In this document: piece after piece, positions 26,866-32,707 of the stretch
Position numbering within the stretch: the first letter of the stretch is position 1
Layout: each line of letters begins with the position of its first letter
Assembly: GCF_003391055.1 (NCBI RefSeq)
Contig: NZ_QUAJ01000029.1
Location: 1 to 32,707 of the forward strand
From: Psychrilyobacter piezotolerans
GTDB taxonomy: Bacteria > Fusobacteriota > Fusobacteriia > Fusobacteriales > Fusobacteriaceae
Length of the DNA: 32,707 nucleotides
Direction: 5' to 3'
Translations under genes and position numbers: made by a program
Notes under the pieces: generated by a model
Databases searched by the model: none
What the model saw: only the letters and a program-made list of their open reading frames with translations
Told to the model about the DNA's origin: nothing

Positions 26866-27819
26866 TTATTTGGCTAAGACCTTATAATATTCATCCTGAC
26901 TGATATTAAAACCTGACTTTAAAAATATTTTTTCCATTTTTTTATTCTCTATTTTTATCAATATTTCAACTATTCCGCTGTCCAGCTGGGTACCTGAAAT
27001 TTCTTTTAAAATTTCAACTGCCTCTCTGTGGGATCTCTTCCTCTGGTATATACGGGATGTAGTAAGTGCAGAATAGGTGTCTGCTACAGCTATAATTCTG
27101 GATTCCAGGGGTATTTCATTTTTTTTCAGTCTGTAATACCCCTGGCCGTCAATTCTTTCGTGATGGTATTTGATCCATGGAATTATTTTATGAAAGACCT
27201 CAAAGGGTTCTAAAATATAGATTCCGTCGGATACATGTTTTTTTATTTGTTCGTATTCCTGGGCAGATAATTCGCTTTTTTTATTTAGAATTTCTGAAGG
27301 AGTCATAATTTTTCCTATGTCATGAAGGAGCGCCGCTTCTACCAGATCGTTTTTTGAAAGATTTTTCTTCAATTTTGAAGGGAGATCCTCAAATATGGCT
27401 TTCACTAAATTGGCTACATGTTCGGAATGGTTGCCTGTGTACCTGTCTCTTAGTTTGACTGCCCTGGTTAAACTCTCAATTGTCTGCGTATAAAAAGAAT
27501 TTAGGGAAGATGAAAGATTTTTCAGCAGCAGTATGATTATATATATGAAAAAACCATCCATAAAAAACAGCAGTGAAGTTGCAAGTGTGAGCTGATTATT
27601 CATTACTTTTTTCAAATTAAGATAACCAAAATGAGATAGATATAAAAATAGAAAGGAAACCATTGCTGCAAAAACAATAAGAGTTTTTTTCTTTTTATGG
27701 GAACCTTTTATTATTTTGAAGACATTTCCAGAATTTTTTAAAAGCCTCAAATAATTTATTAAGCCTAAAAAAATAAAGATCACTCCCAGTGTGACTAGTG
27801 CTGAATTTATATATTCCAT
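26866..27819 (-). CDS. Membrane HD-GYP protein, predicted c-di-GMP phosphodiesterase
   Basis: 317 residues with about three membrane helices (8-25, 46-64, 80-100) and an HD-GYP domain from about 108. Metal-site residues are visible: His131 in GNHSEHV, the HD pair in LLHDIGK (166-167), HHE (219-221) and Asp247 in ADTYSAL. The motif naming the family reads HHERIDGQGYY instead of GYP: the proline is a tyrosine (229), which is outside the metal site. It should hydrolyse cyclic di-GMP to pGpG or GMP, though activity with the altered loop is not certain. The ATG at 27819 is preferred because the GTG at 27828 is part of the Shine-Dalgarno GAGGTG. Confidence 0.87.
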   Translation of the reverse strand: MEYINSALVTLGVIFIFLGLINYLRLLKNSGNVFKIIKGSHKKKKTLIVFAAMVSFLFLYLSHFGYLNLKKVMNNQLTLATSLLFFMDGFFIYIIILLLKNLSSSLNSFYTQTIESLTRAVKLRDRYTGNHSEHVANLVKAIFEDLPSKLKKNLSKNDLVEAALLHDIGKIMTPSEILNKKSELSAQEYEQIKKHVSDGIYILEPFEVFHKIIPWIKYHHERIDGQGYYRLKKNEIPLESRIIAVADTYSALTTSRIYQRKRSHREAVEILKEISGTQLDSGIVEILIKIENKKMEKIFLKSGFNISQDEYYKVLAK

Positions 27820-27867
27820 TAAATACACCTCTTTTTATTTAAAACAATAAAAATATAATTTCAATAT

Positions 27868-28382: not shown

Positions 28383-28583
28383 TTAGAAGTGTTAAAAGCT
28401 TTCTAATTTAAGTGTTAGAGTTGTATTTTTAGAAAGTGATACAGAAGATTTTTGAGATAGAGAAAATTATAAAAAATTATTCATTTGTTGATAGAAATAA
28501 AAGATTATGAGTCTCTATTTTTTTTTTATTAAAGTCAATTAAATAAATAAAGAAGATTAAAGTATCAATAAAAGGAGCGTGCT

Positions 28584-28970
28584 ATGAAAAAAATTGAAGT
28601 AGTTGCAGCGGTATTAAAATATAAAGATAAATATTTTTGCGCTCAAAGAAAAAATAAAGGTCCTCTAGCTATGAAATGGGAATTCCCTGGAGGAAAAATT
28701 GAAAAAGGAGAGACCAAAGAAGACGCTCTTATTAGAGAGTTAAAAGAAGAGCTTCTATTGGATATTACTATAGATAATTTTATTATGACTATTGAACATC
28801 AATATGAAACATTCCATCTAACAATGCATGCTTATCTTTGTCATGGAGATACAAACGATATTAAATTAATGGAACACTTAAACAGTAAATGGTTAGATAA
28901 AAATAACCTAAAAAATTTAGATTGGGCTGAAGCAGACATCCCAATAGTAAAAAAATTAATAGGAGAGTAA
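28584..28970 (+). CDS. NUDIX hydrolase (MutT/CTP pyrophosphohydrolase-like)
   Basis: A 128-residue NUDIX enzyme, of the type that cleaves (deoxy)nucleoside triphosphates to monophosphate and pyrophosphate. The NUDIX box runs 37-59: G37, E43, R51-E52, E55-E56, so all metal-binding acidic residues are there. The glycine that usually follows EEx is a leucine (58). The QRKNKGPLAMKWEFPGGK segment is typical of MutT/NudG relatives. The Shine-Dalgarno is AAAGGAG. One base separates its stop from the helicase start, so the two proteins are made from one message. Whether it cleans the nucleotide pool or makes or removes a signal nucleotide for the helicase is unknown. Confidence 0.87.
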   Translation: MKKIEVVAAVLKYKDKYFCAQRKNKGPLAMKWEFPGGKIEKGETKEDALIRELKEELLLDITIDNFIMTIEHQYETFHLTMHAYLCHGDTNDIKLMEHLNSKWLDKNNLKNLDWAEADIPIVKKLIGE

Positions 28971-28971
28971 G

Positions 28972-31758
28972 ATGGATAAAGCTATAAAAAAATCACTATT
29001 TAATAAAGAGGTAGAGTCTATTACTTATAATCCTAACTTAGTTGTTAATACTAATATTAAAAACATAAAAGACAAAGTGCAAAACCTTCTAAGAACTTCT
29101 AAAAGAGTTGACATTGCTGTCAGTTATGCTGTTTGGTCTGGACTCTCCCTTATTTACCAAGATTTGAAAAACTTTGACTCTAATAGCCGAATAATCGTAA
29201 CTACTGAAGGAATGGTAACTGACCCTAGATCTTTGAGAAAACTTCTTGAGTTACCTATGGAGTCAAAAGTTTATACTCCTCGTCTTGGGGATAAAGGATT
29301 CCATTTAAAAACATATCTAGGTGAAGGTGAAGATCAATGTAAGATAATTTTGGGAAGTTCTAATATTTCAGCTAGGGCATTTGGTCTAGTTCATGAACTA
29401 GCAGTAGAAATAAATTCTACAAAAGATGGGTATATCATAGAAGAACACACAGATATTTTTAATAACATTTGGGAAGATTCTCTTTCTAAAACTATCACCA
29501 CCGAATTAATAAAACAATATACACAGTTATTTAATGAAAAAAAAACATTTAATAAAAGAATTCATGACTTCCAATTAAAAAACAATATTATTCCTAATTA
29601 CATGCAAGAAAAAGCACTAATTGAGTTGAAAAAATGTAGGGAAGAATCTGAAAAAGGTCTTGTAATTGCTGCCACTGGGACTGGAAAAACATATCTTTCT
29701 GCTTTTGATGTGAAACAATTTGAAGCTAAAAAAGTACTATTTTTAGTACATAACAGACTTATACTATCATCTGCTATAGAAACATTCCAAAAGGTTTTTC
29801 CTAATAAGAAGTTATTAGAATTAAATTCATCAAATTTAAGAACTATTCATAGTTCTGACATTATTTTTACTACTGATAAAACGGCTTATAGCCACTTATA
29901 TAATAAATTTCCCGATGATTATTTTGACTATATAATCTATGATGAGGCTCATAAAATAGGAGAGAATACTAATTATCATAATTTAATAGATTTCTTTAAT
30001 CCTCAATTTACTCTTGGAATTACAGCAACTCCAGAGAGAACTGAAGATCCTAAATTTTTATTTGATATTTTTGATTATACAGTTCCTTATGAAATAAGAT
30101 TATTAGATGCTATGAATCATCAATTAGTCTGTCCATTTACTTACTATGGTTTAGATCTTGAAGAAAAATTGTTAGAACCCAATCAAAAGTTTAATTATTA
30201 TGAATTAGCTAAATTTATGAGGCAACAACTAAATGAGAAAGGACACTTCGGAGAAAAACTAAAAGGTATTGTTTTTTGCTCTCAAATGGCTGAAGCTAAT
30301 AAACTATCTATTGAATTAAACAATATAGGAATAAATACAAAATCTATTACCAGTAATAATTCTAACAGAGAAGATGTAGAAGACTATATAAAACGATTAA
30401 AAAGTGACGTAGGAGATATAGAACTTTTATGTGTAGTAAATAAATTTAATGAAGGTGTTGATATCCCTGACATAAACACAATTTTCATGGTAAGAAACAC
30501 TACTTCTTCCATTATATATTTACAACAATTAGGTAGAGGACTTAGAAAAACTGAAGACCCACATAAATATGTTACTGTCTTTGATATTATTGGAAATTCA
30601 AATAACAACTATTCCATTGCTGAAGTTTTGACTGGAAATACTACTGCTGACAAAAGAACTTTGTTTGAACATGCTAACGAAGAATTTGAATCTGTTTCTC
30701 CATTTATCAATGTTAAGATTGAAAAAAAAGCTATGGAAAATATAATCAATTCTATATCTAATAATTTTAAAGTAGAATCAAGATTAAAAACTAAAATCAT
30801 AGATGAATTATATCGGTTTAAAGAAATTCCTAGATTGGTTGAACTATATAATAATCCAAACTTTAAAGAATTAGACCTTTTGCAACTGCTTTGTAAAAAT
30901 TTTTATGAACCCTTTATGAATAAATATGTTGAAAAATACGATATAACTAAAGATGATAAATTTCTTATAAAATTCTTTGGATTGATTACTCAATTTACTT
31001 TTAGGGGTTATAGCAGCGATATCTTAAAACAGTACGTTAAATTATTGAGAGGTGAAAAAATATATAACCAAGAACTTATCTCTATTCTCATTCCTAGAGA
31101 TATAAATGGTAAAAAAACTGCTATAAATAGTGATTACTTCAAAAAAGGAAATGATTTTGTTAATATTTTTAATTATGGAACTAAACTTTCATTAACTTCT
31201 GAAGTTATAGAAGAGTTAAAAAATAAGAATGCTTATGAATTATTCATAGAACATATTGAGTTATTTGAAGAATTGTCTAAAAAAGAATCATACGAAATGA
31301 AAACATTTGATCTTGTTGACAAAGGAGAGTTTCTTTACAATATGAATGCTAATGATTGCTATATGAACGCCGTTGGTGAGAGAATAGATCACCAACAAAA
31401 GAAATTTTATTCTCCTATTCAAATAATTAACTCTGACTCTTTTCATAATAACTATATAGATGATAGAGGAAGGGTGGTCTATATGACCCAAGAATCTACT
31501 ACTATAGAGGGGGCTTTAAAAAAAGTAGAGATGTTAAAAAATGGTTATAAAATGGTAGTTTGTGCTAAATTTCCACATTTAGGATATAGTTCTACTGCCT
31601 ACTTTAACTTAGGAGAGACTATCATCGATGAAATATCACCAGTAAAAATTCAAGAAAAAAAGAATAGCTCTGGAAAAATAGTAAAAAAATATAACAATAA
31701 AATCTTCCTAAGGTTAGATAAAAAAATACCTGAAGAACTTTTACAATATAAAAAATAA
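28972..31758 (+). CDS. PLD-like nuclease/DEAH helicase/DUF3427 protein
   Basis: A 928-residue protein with three parts. Residues about 20-175 are a phospholipase D-like domain with one HxK (His111, Lys113) followed by GSSN (128-131), as in PLD-type nucleases, which usually work as dimers. Residues about 205-560 are a superfamily 2 helicase: ATGTGKT (234-240), DEAH (324-327), TAT (351-353) and QQLGRGLRK (518-526). The C-terminal third ends in a DUF3427 domain (about 800-925, with MNANDCYMNAVGERIDHQQKKFYSPIQ). This architecture occurs in many bacterial genomes near mobile elements and defence genes. Predicted to move along and cut nucleic acid. Its AT-rich codons and its setting between hairpin-rich and decayed sequence suggest transfer. 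Confidence 0.88.
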   Translation: MDKAIKKSLFNKEVESITYNPNLVVNTNIKNIKDKVQNLLRTSKRVDIAVSYAVWSGLSLIYQDLKNFDSNSRIIVTTEGMVTDPRSLRKLLELPMESKVYTPRLGDKGFHLKTYLGEGEDQCKIILGSSNISARAFGLVHELAVEINSTKDGYIIEEHTDIFNNIWEDSLSKTITTELIKQYTQLFNEKKTFNKRIHDFQLKNNIIPNYMQEKALIELKKCREESEKGLVIAATGTGKTYLSAFDVKQFEAKKVLFLVHNRLILSSAIETFQKVFPNKKLLELNSSNLRTIHSSDIIFTTDKTAYSHLYNKFPDDYFDYIIYDEAHKIGENTNYHNLIDFFNPQFTLGITATPERTEDPKFLFDIFDYTVPYEIRLLDAMNHQLVCPFTYYGLDLEEKLLEPNQKFNYYELAKFMRQQLNEKGHFGEKLKGIVFCSQMAEANKLSIELNNIGINTKSITSNNSNREDVEDYIKRLKSDVGDIELLCVVNKFNEGVDIPDINTIFMVRNTTSSIIYLQQLGRGLRKTEDPHKYVTVFDIIGNSNNNYSIAEVLTGNTTADKRTLFEHANEEFESVSPFINVKIEKKAMENIINSISNNFKVESRLKTKIIDELYRFKEIPRLVELYNNPNFKELDLLQLLCKNFYEPFMNKYVEKYDITKDDKFLIKFFGLITQFTFRGYSSDILKQYVKLLRGEKIYNQELISILIPRDINGKKTAINSDYFKKGNDFVNIFNYGTKLSLTSEVIEELKNKNAYELFIEHIELFEELSKKESYEMKTFDLVDKGEFLYNMNANDCYMNAVGERIDHQQKKFYSPIQIINSDSFHNNYIDDRGRVVYMTQESTTIEGALKKVEMLKNGYKMVVCAKFPHLGYSSTAYFNLGETIIDEISPVKIQEKKNSSGKIVKKYNNKIFLRLDKKIPEELLQYKK

Positions 31759-32324: not shown

Positions 32325-32707
32325 TTAAAAATATTTGAAGAACAGGTAGATATTAGCTGCAATTAAAGTCTGAACTGCTATTACGAGGCCGAATTTCATA
32401 AATTTACCAAAACTTATCTTACACCCTGCCTTAGTGGCTGAATTTATAGCCACTACATTGGTTGCCGATGCCAGGATAGTTATGTTCCCTCCCAGGAGTG
32501 ATCCCATAGAAAGTGCCCACCAGAATGTCGTAGTCTGCAGACCTTCAAAACTGGGAATCATAAAATGAATTATCTTGGATACCATGGCTGCATTGGCTAC
32601 ATTTCCAATTACCGAGGTGAATAATGCCGATACCCACATTATCATACTCACTGCCAATGGGAAATTTCCCCGGGTGTATTTTACAATATTGTGTCCAACA
32701 ATATCCA
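32325..32707 (-). CDS. ArsB/NhaD/DASS-type ion transporter, C-terminal part
   Basis: The last 127 codons of a membrane transporter; the frame is open to the window edge, so the gene continues to the right. Three or four hydrophobic segments are visible. The pattern MWVSALFTSVIGNVANAAMV, then TTFWWALSMGSLLGGNITILASATNVVAINSATKAG, then SFGKFMKFG, is typical of the second half of ion transporter superfamily members (arsenite pump ArsB, sodium/proton antiporter NhaD, and related citrate or anion carriers). The substrate cannot be decided from this half. Confidence 0.85.
   Translation of the reverse strand, partial: DIVGHNIVKYTRGNFPLAVSMIMWVSALFTSVIGNVANAAMVSKIIHFMIPSFEGLQTTTFWWALSMGSLLGGNITILASATNVVAINSATKAGCKISFGKFMKFGLVIAVQTLIAANIYLFFKYF

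What the first reader, a model, noticed from the sequence alone, without database searches (positions are those of the whole stretch)
28584..31758. NUDIX plus PLD-helicase-DUF3427 operon as a candidate defence or repair module
The two genes are one base apart. The large protein combines a single-motif PLD nuclease, a DEAH helicase with all main motifs and DUF3427; the partner is a nucleotide pyrophosphohydrolase with intact metal residues but Leu for the NUDIX-box glycine. Flanks are gene-poor with decayed genes. Helicase-nuclease pairs with a nucleotide-processing enzyme are a common anti-phage layout, yet this pairing matches no named system I know. The NUDIX enzyme may remove a modified nucleotide or control a signal.
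Basis: partly seen in the sequence, partly recalled or inferred. Interest (0 to 1): 0.7.

Follow-up and report, generated by a model that had tools for sequence, protein, structure and literature searches.

The report
Type IV restriction enzyme with modified-dCTP hydrolase
Two neighbouring bacterial genes encode a DNA-shredding enzyme related to one that attacks DNA carrying chemically tagged cytosine, and a small partner enzyme whose closest tested relative destroys the tagged building blocks (5-methyl- and 5-hydroxymethyl-dCTP), so the pair probably stops the cell from building the very tags it attacks into its own DNA.

Summary
The two ORFs are real, intact and one base apart. The large protein is a divergent member of a known family: SauUSI-type, ATP-dependent, modification-dependent (Type IV) restriction enzymes. 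SauUSI (7CLG) is its best solved relative, and the predicted C-terminal fold matches SauUSI alone, although Pfam DUF3427 does not score.

The new part is the partner. In the phylum survey, 19 of 81 SauUSI-like genes have this NUDIX type directly beside them, upstream, downstream or fused. The pairing recurs in Bacillota, Bacteroidota, Acholeplasmataceae and archaea. SauUSI itself has it, one base upstream. The NUDIX type also sits beside an unrelated SRA-HNH (McrA-like) enzyme in prophages.

The closest assayed relative, B. fragilis Q5LBB1/3GWY, lies inside a clade whose other nine members are all SauUSI-paired. It hydrolyses 5-methyl-dCTP and 5-hydroxymethyl-dCTP at about 4-5x10^6 M-1 s-1, the triphosphates of the bases that SauUSI attacks in DNA.

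Best reading: a Type IV restriction module with a matched nucleotide-pool sanitiser that prevents self-attack and may also starve base-modifying phages. Substrate and function here are inferred, not assayed. Adjacency of MutT homologues to SauUSI homologues was already noted in a 2020 figure legend; I found no functional explanation.

The parts
28584..28970 (+). NUDIX hydrolase, 128 aa; member of the clade that holds the 5-methyl-dCTP / 5-hydroxymethyl-dCTP pyrophosphatase Q5LBB1 (3GWY)
   Evidence: PADLOC PDC-S07 169 bits; Pfam NUDIX_4 1.7e-20; best PDB match 3gwy 114 bits; tree; catalytic residues conserved
28972..31758 (+). SauUSI-type Type IV restriction enzyme, 928 aa (PLD nuclease - SF2 ATPase - coupler - SRA-like target recognition domain)
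   Evidence: PADLOC mREase_IV 5.7e-83; PDB 7clg 1.5e-81 over residues 5-761; motifs
28972..29545 (+). PLD nuclease domain (about residues 1-191; one HxK...GSSN motif, expected to act as a dimer as in SauUSI)
   Evidence: PF13091 residues 38-167; HLK at 111, GSSN at 128; domain limits by analogy with 7CLG (PMC7913695)
29587..30795 (+). SF2 DEAH ATPase (translocase), about residues 206-608
   Evidence: PF04851 2.1e-34, PF00271 2.7e-8; motifs
30796..31323 (+). Coupler, mostly helical, about residues 609-784
   Evidence: Predicted structure of residues 609-928; position by analogy with 7CLG
31324..31755 (+). Divergent SRA-like target recognition domain, about residues 785-928
   Evidence: hhalign to the SauUSI-family recognition domain, probability 79%, E 1.7e-5; model with pLDDT about 70-93 here; only significant PDB folds are 7clg_A and 7clg_B, E 6e-5 and 2e-4; Pfam DUF3427 not hit
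28574..28578 (+). Probable ribosome-binding site (AGGAG) before the NUDIX start
   Evidence: sequence
26866..27828 (-). Intact HD-GYP gene that anchors the variable defence site; not part of the module
   Evidence: 78-79% orthologues lie near SauUSI-type loci in three sister genomes

Best explanation
[quoted passage not shown] The 928-aa protein probably binds a modified cytosine in incoming DNA through its SRA-like C-terminus, switches on its SF2 translocase, and shreds the DNA with dimerised PLD nuclease domains (shown for SauUSI, inferred here). The NUDIX protein probably hydrolyses the triphosphates of the same modified cytosines (5-methyl-dCTP, 5-hydroxymethyl-dCTP) to monophosphates (shown for its close relative Q5LBB1, inferred here). 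These triphosphates could come from shredded methylated DNA, from salvage, or from phage enzymes that make them during infection. Removing them keeps the host polymerase from building modified cytosine into the chromosome, which the nuclease would then cut. A second, compatible effect is to deprive phages that make 5-hydroxymethyl-dCTP of their precursor. I put about 0.7 on 'Type IV enzyme plus modified-dCTP hydrolase acting on the same base', and about 0.45 on self-protection being its main use.
For: (1) Nuclease identity: PADLOC mREase_IV and 7CLG; the C-terminal model matches only SauUSI in the PDB. (2) The link is functional, not chance. In the helicase-first phylum survey, 19 of 81 SauUSI-like genes have this NUDIX directly beside them on the same strand (12 downstream, 4 upstream, 3 fused), against about 0.02 expected. 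The pairing state changes at least 13 times on the helicase tree. (3) Single-chain NUDIX-SauUSI fusions in G032 and G035 (69% orthologues). (4) SauUSI itself is preceded by this NUDIX, TAA-1 nt-ATG; that NUDIX is the solved protein 5X1X. (5) Substrate: 3GWY/Q5LBB1 falls inside a 10-row clade (support 95/92) whose other nine members, window included, are all SauUSI-paired. It has kcat/Km of 4.8e6 for 5-Me-dCTP and 4.4e6 for 5-hydroxymethyl-dCTP (PMC5158307). SauUSI acts on 5mC and 5hmC (PMC7913695). (6) The same NUDIX clade overlaps a SRA-HNH, McrA-like Type IV enzyme in IMG/VR contigs (12 of 12 readable). (7) Two lactobacilli add a MazG-like pyrophosphatase right after SauUSI; mammalian dCTP pyrophosphatases cited as 5-methyl-dCTPases (DCTPP1, RS21-C6; PMC10742078) are, to my knowledge, of this MazG-like kind.
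Against: No activity was measured for either window protein. The window NUDIX is only 44% identical to Q5LBB1. Whether Q5LBB1 itself is paired in B. fragilis could not be checked. Most SauUSI-like genes in the phylum (62 of 81) have no adjacent NUDIX, so it is not obligatory. The window recognition domain is divergent: its methyl-contact Tyr831 equivalent is not conserved in a weak alignment, so 5mC/5hmC specificity is an assumption. Pairing does not track the presence of host cytosine-5 methyltransferases (3 of 16 paired versus 14 of 45 unpaired genomes, p=0.52), which argues against host-methylome turnover as the main source. Destroying hm-dCTP would lower modification of phage DNA and so could work against the nuclease, which makes the phage-starvation variant less simple.
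Confidence: 0.7

Rival explanations
1. Two-pronged attack: the NUDIX enzyme is mainly an anti-phage weapon that destroys the 5-hydroxymethyl-dCTP (or 5-methyl-dCTP) pool of base-modifying phages, while the nuclease cuts whatever modified DNA is still made.
For: Same substrate evidence; mobile, defence-island settings; PADLOC lists the NUDIX alone as defence candidate PDC-S07.
Against: Lowering modification removes the mark that the nuclease needs; no phage test exists; PDC-S07 papers read here only list occurrences.
Confidence: 0.2
2. The NUDIX is a general MutT-like sanitiser (8-oxo-dGTP) or DNA-repair helper that merely travels with the nuclease.
For: MutT-type fold and annotation; E. coli MutT has slight 5-methyl-dCTP activity (PMC3744803), so the families blur.
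Against: MutT and NudG fall outside the paired clade (98/94); D118 replaces the MutT Asn119 and Trp114 is near-universal in paired enzymes and 3GWY but not in NudG or MutT; fusions and repeated recruitment argue for a specific link.
Confidence: 0.07
3. The NUDIX protein is a physical subunit or sensor: it binds the nuclease and gates its activity, with its catalysis clearing a nucleotide signal.
For: Natural N-terminal fusion to the nuclease domain; one-base spacing suggests translational coupling.
Against: SauUSI alone is a stable, active dimer in vitro (PMC7913695); most relatives have no NUDIX neighbour.
Confidence: 0.08
4. Defence-island hitch-hiking: the two genes lie together by chance or shared mobility and have no joint function.
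For: Defence genes cluster; the locus is a variable site.
Against: Immediate, same-strand adjacency in 19 of 81 cases while only two NUDIX genes of this clade lie elsewhere within 6 kb; both gene orders; fusions; two unrelated Type IV nucleases.
Confidence: 0.03

Closest known systems
SauUSI (Staphylococcus aureus, PDB 7CLG; Type IV restriction enzyme)
   Same: Same domain order: single-motif PLD nuclease, SF2 ATPase, coupler, SRA-like recognition domain; same NUDIX gene one base upstream in S. aureus
   Different: Window protein is divergent: 283 bits to the mREase_IV model against 771 for a paralogue in the same genome, no Pfam DUF3427 match, recognition-pocket residues not clearly kept
Q5LBB1_BACFN (PDB 3GWY), 5-methyl-(d)CTP / 5-hydroxymethyl-dCTP pyrophosphatase
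   Same: Same clade of NUDIX enzymes, 44% identity, same catalytic residues, same Trp114 and Asp118, no box glycine
   Different: Q5LBB1's gene neighbourhood was not available; the window enzyme is not assayed
E. coli NudG (Orf135)
   Same: Homologous; hydrolyses 5-methyl-dCTP (PMC5158307 table)
   Different: Outside the paired clade; lacks Trp114; not beside a restriction gene in E. coli K-12
PADLOC candidate PDC-S07
   Same: Window NUDIX matches the model over its full length, 169 bits
   Different: PDC-S07 is listed as a stand-alone candidate; here it reads as an accessory of Type IV nucleases
MutT homologues beside SauUSI homologues in Streptococcus (Bell et al. 2020, PMC7641849, Fig. 9 legend)
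   Same: Same adjacency, noted in print
   Different: Only a legend remark; no substrate or function proposed in the passages found

Membership tests
SauUSI-type Type IV restriction enzyme | N-terminal PLD nuclease with HxK...GSxN | tested here: met
   PF13091 above its cut-off; HLK 111, GSSN 128
SauUSI-type Type IV restriction enzyme | SF2 DExH ATPase with intact motifs | tested here: met
   PF04851, PF00271; GTGKT, DEAH, TATP, QLGRGLRK
SauUSI-type Type IV restriction enzyme | C-terminal SRA-like target recognition domain | tested here: met
   Remote: hhalign E 1.7e-5; predicted fold matches only 7clg in the PDB. The alignment used for folding held SauUSI relatives
SauUSI-type Type IV restriction enzyme | Cleavage depends on 5mC/5hmC and ATP | not testable with these tools
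   needs enzyme assays; pocket residues poorly conserved
Pfam DUF3427 (PF11907) | Match above the curated cut-off | tested here: not met
   No match at E<0.1 for the window protein or E<0.01 for orthologue L098
5-methyl-dCTP / 5-hydroxymethyl-dCTP pyrophosphatase clade (3GWY) | Clade membership with an assayed enzyme | tested here: met
   Starred 10-row clade 95/92
5-methyl-dCTP / 5-hydroxymethyl-dCTP pyrophosphatase clade (3GWY) | Hydrolysis of 5-substituted dCTP | not testable with these tools
   needs assay
MutT (8-oxo-dGTP diphosphatase) | Equivalog score; Asn119 for 8-oxoguanine | tested here: not met
   TIGR00586 83.6 bits against cut-off 97.9; Asp at that position
NudG equivalog (NF007834) | Score above cut-off 156 | tested here: not met
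   91 bits
PADLOC PDC-S07 | Full-length profile match | tested here: met
   9.6e-51, positions 3-129 of 135

The most novel reading that the evidence does not exclude
Type IV restriction enzymes of at least two unrelated classes carry a dedicated enzyme that removes, from the nucleotide pool, the triphosphate of the same modified base that they attack in DNA. Self versus non-self would then be kept apart not by a DNA methyltransferase, as in classic restriction-modification, but by cleaning the precursor pool. Candidate defence gene PDC-S07 would be this component, and S. aureus SauUSI would be half of an overlooked two-gene system.
Probability: 0.45. Interest if true: 0.78.

Novelty: new variant of a known kind. 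Interest (0 to 1): 0.62.

Why it matters
How a cell that destroys modified DNA avoids marking its own DNA is a natural question for Type IV systems, because they have no companion methyltransferase. A matched modified-dCTP hydrolase would be a simple answer and would give a function to a listed but unexplained defence candidate (PDC-S07). It would also bear on S. aureus, where SauUSI is a main barrier to gene transfer, since its NUDIX neighbour is already solved (5X1X) and can be assayed at once. The prediction is sharp: the substrate range of the NUDIX should match the base specificity of the nuclease beside it.

Tried and rejected
Rfam and tRNA scans of the window: nothing. No attachment-site-like direct repeat pair around the locus stood out among short AT-rich chance repeats, and promoter and terminator pattern hits were below shuffle level. 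Viral-contig scan with the window helicase: no relative. Correlation of host cytosine-5 methyltransferases with NUDIX pairing: none. Co-divergence of NUDIX and nuclease: Mantel r=0.71, p=1e-4, but the signal vanishes among distant pairs (r=-0.05), so it shows only shared recent descent. L055 (G051), which looked like a 599-aa NUDIX fusion, is an artefact of a long open frame in GC-rich DNA. Search for the B. fragilis locus of 3GWY in plasmids and IMG/VR: best 51-54%, so its context stays unknown. Prior reports of a SauUSI-NUDIX function: only the legend remark in PMC7641849; Xu et al. 2011 (SauUSI discovery) is not held. ADP-ribose or signal control by the NUDIX: no specific support, dropped.
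Full report
WHAT IS THERE. The NUDIX ORF (28584-28970) and the helicase ORF (28972-31758) are both open, on the + strand and one base apart (TAA-G-ATG), with AGGAG before the first ATG. The window is a whole contig (G000:C29) of a 3.36-Mb, 99.8% complete genome. Below, 'the phylum' means the 98 genomes the tool assigned to the window's phylum.

THE LARGE PROTEIN. PADLOC's best model is mREase_IV, Type IV methyl-directed restriction enzyme (5.7e-83), and the best solved relative is 7CLG (1.5e-81 over residues 5-761). 7CLG is SauUSI, for which the published structure gives nuclease 1-191, ATPase 221-617, coupler 618-805 and an SRA-fold recognition domain 806-953, with ATP-dependent shredding of DNA carrying 5mC, and cleavage of 5hmC DNA (PMC7913695). 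In the window protein the PLD and helicase motifs are intact. A profile built from the window protein and its three orthologues aligns with the SauUSI-family recognition domain (E 1.7e-5, 15% identity). An AlphaFold2 model of residues 609-928 (mean pLDDT 77.6, about 70-93 in the recognition domain) has only the two 7CLG chains as significant PDB matches. So it is a divergent SauUSI-type enzyme. In the weak alignment, SauUSI Asp858 falls on Asn, Trp868 on Tyr, and Tyr831 (methyl contact) is not kept, so its exact target is open.

THE NUDIX PROTEIN. It matches PADLOC PDC-S07 along its full length (169 bits) and misses the MutT and NudG equivalog cut-offs. All catalytic residues are present. The 'odd' Leu at the box glycine is normal for the group: 29 of 30 paired relatives and the assayed enzyme 3GWY have another residue there. 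The nearest solved relative, 3GWY, is Q5LBB1 of Bacteroides fragilis. In a 74-compound screen that protein proved to be a pyrophosphatase for 5-Me-CTP (6.7e6 M-1 s-1), 5-Me-dCTP (4.8e6) and 5-hydroxymethyl-dCTP (4.4e6), about 50-fold better than for 5-OH-dCTP (PMC5158307). In a maximum-likelihood tree of 50 NUDIX proteins it lies within a starred set of ten rows (95/92), the other nine of which, the window's included, sit beside SauUSI-type genes. E. coli MutT and NudG lie outside the larger clade (98/94). Trp114 and Asp118 are shared by the window, 3GWY and 29-30 of 30 paired proteins; MutT has Phe and Asn there, NudG Leu and Asp.

THE PAIRING IS REAL AND RECURRENT. Starting from the nuclease, I read the flanks of 81 SauUSI-like genes in the phylum. 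19 have a NUDIX of this group directly beside them on the same strand: 12 downstream, 4 upstream, 3 fused, the three fused copies from two genomes. With roughly 34 such NUDIX genes in about 98 x 2300 genes (my estimate of gene number), 0.02 would be expected. On the nuclease tree the pairing state needs at least 13 changes. Starting from the NUDIX, its closest relatives in GTDB (Acholeplasmataceae, Geomicrobium, the archaeon Methanobrevibacter) all lie beside SauUSI-like genes. So do those on Hymenobacter and Latilactobacillus plasmids, and on an L. plantarum plasmid reached from the nuclease. In G032 and G035, 69% orthologues of the window protein are one open frame of 1055-1056 codons with NUDIX first. 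Most telling, an S. aureus contig carries SauUSI itself (2066 bits to 7CLG) with the NUDIX gene ending one base before its ATG. The S. aureus NUDIX protein is identical over 124 aa to the solved 5X1X.

A SECOND NUCLEASE CLASS. In 12 of 12 readable IMG/VR contigs found with 3GWY, several with terminase-like genes nearby, the NUDIX gene is followed at once by a 277-aa SRA-HNH protein (its gene is broken in L187); in L177 the two genes overlap by 7 bases. Its HNH part matches E. coli McrA (6ghc, 4e-17) and PADLOC mREase_IV; its SRA match is weak (22.6 bits, below cut-off). Two lactobacilli also have a MazG-like pyrophosphatase gene right after SauUSI. A recent paper cites mammalian RS21-C6 and DCTPP1 as specific 5-methyl-dCTP hydrolases (PMC10742078); that these are of the MazG-like kind is from my own knowledge. 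Looser neighbours of clade NUDIX genes are an EVE-like and a GmrSD_N gene, a PDC-S41 helicase and an AbiLi-like ATPase, and a NUDIX-Vsr fusion.

LOCATION. The HD-GYP gene left of the pair (26866-27828) has 78-79% orthologues in three sister genomes, and each lies near a SauUSI-type locus. G061 has NUDIX + SauUSI, G055 SauUSI-NUDIX-SauUSI, and G059 SauUSI without NUDIX plus PDC-S41. The site is thus a variable defence spot where different Type IV cassettes are swapped. The right flank cannot be judged because the contig ends in a repeated transporter gene.

HOW IT MOST LIKELY WORKS. Shown elsewhere: SauUSI-type enzymes destroy C5-modified DNA; 3GWY destroys 5-methyl- and 5-hydroxymethyl-dCTP. 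Shown here: the two families are physically and evolutionarily tied, with the assayed NUDIX inside the tied clade. Inferred: the window NUDIX has that substrate, and its role is to keep the modified precursor out of host DNA (self-protection), with starvation of base-modifying phages as a second use. Self-protection is preferred because destroying the modified precursor lowers the mark that the nuclease needs on phage DNA. It is not obligatory, since 62 of 81 relatives lack the neighbour. It does not track host cytosine-5 methyltransferases (p=0.52), so foreign or salvaged nucleotides are a likelier source than host methylation.

PRIOR KNOWLEDGE. 52 held papers mention SauUSI. Among them I found one remark that bears on this: a figure legend in Bell et al. 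2020 states that small proteins adjacent to SauUSI homologues in Streptococcus are MutT homologues (PMC7641849). I found no statement of function. The 2011 SauUSI paper and subscription papers were not readable, so prior proposals cannot be excluded.

VERDICT. The nuclease is a divergent member of a known kind. The module, a Type IV nuclease with a matched modified-dCTP hydrolase, is a new variant whose functional logic is testable at once.

Noticed in passing
L019/L020 (G035:C5:68430-71579 -, G032:C12:25838-28987 -): NUDIX and SauUSI-type nuclease fused in one open frame; G035 carries two identical copies about 62 kb apart in opposite orientation.
   Followed up: partly
L176-L188 (IMG/VR contigs), e.g. 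L177 5995-7238: The NUDIX clade forms an overlapping operon with a 277-aa SRA-HNH, McrA-like nuclease; in L187 the nuclease gene is broken into two frames.
   Followed up: partly
L069 6001-6990 (Collinsella aerofaciens plasmid): NUDIX (PDC-S07) fused to a Vsr mismatch endonuclease domain, another protein family tied to 5-methylcytosine.
   Followed up: no
L068 6001-9499 (Selenomonas ruminantium plasmid pSRC2): NUDIX of this clade next to a weak EVE-domain match, a nucleoside 2-deoxyribosyltransferase and, on the opposite strand, a GmrSD_N protein.
   Followed up: no
L208 2499-7894 (Lactiplantibacillus plantarum plasmid): Four-gene run NUDIX - SauUSI - MazG-like pyrophosphatase - GIY-YIG/SLFN-g3 helicase; a MazG-like gene also follows SauUSI in L. 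fermentum (L067 9431-9742).
   Followed up: partly
L093 647-3061: PDC-S41 (SLFN-g3 helicase) 12 bp upstream of a clade NUDIX; PDC-S41 also lies in the HD-GYP defence spot of G059 (L205 5979-7946).
   Followed up: no
L100/L206 (G055:C3:334404-339937): Two different SauUSI-type nucleases in tandem with one NUDIX gene between them.
   Followed up: no
G000:C19:6387-9257 - and G000:C6:15904-17784 +: The window's genome has two more SauUSI-type genes without an adjacent NUDIX; the C19 copy is far closer to the family model (771 bits) than the window's (283).
   Followed up: partly
window 32325-32705: Partial ArsB/CitMHS-type transporter at the contig end with 94-96% identical copies on contigs C20 and C5; the repeat probably broke the assembly here.
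   Followed up: partly
G000:C7:116681-117589 +: The host encodes one cytosine-5 DNA methyltransferase, so its own m5C motif must escape its Type IV enzymes.
   Followed up: no
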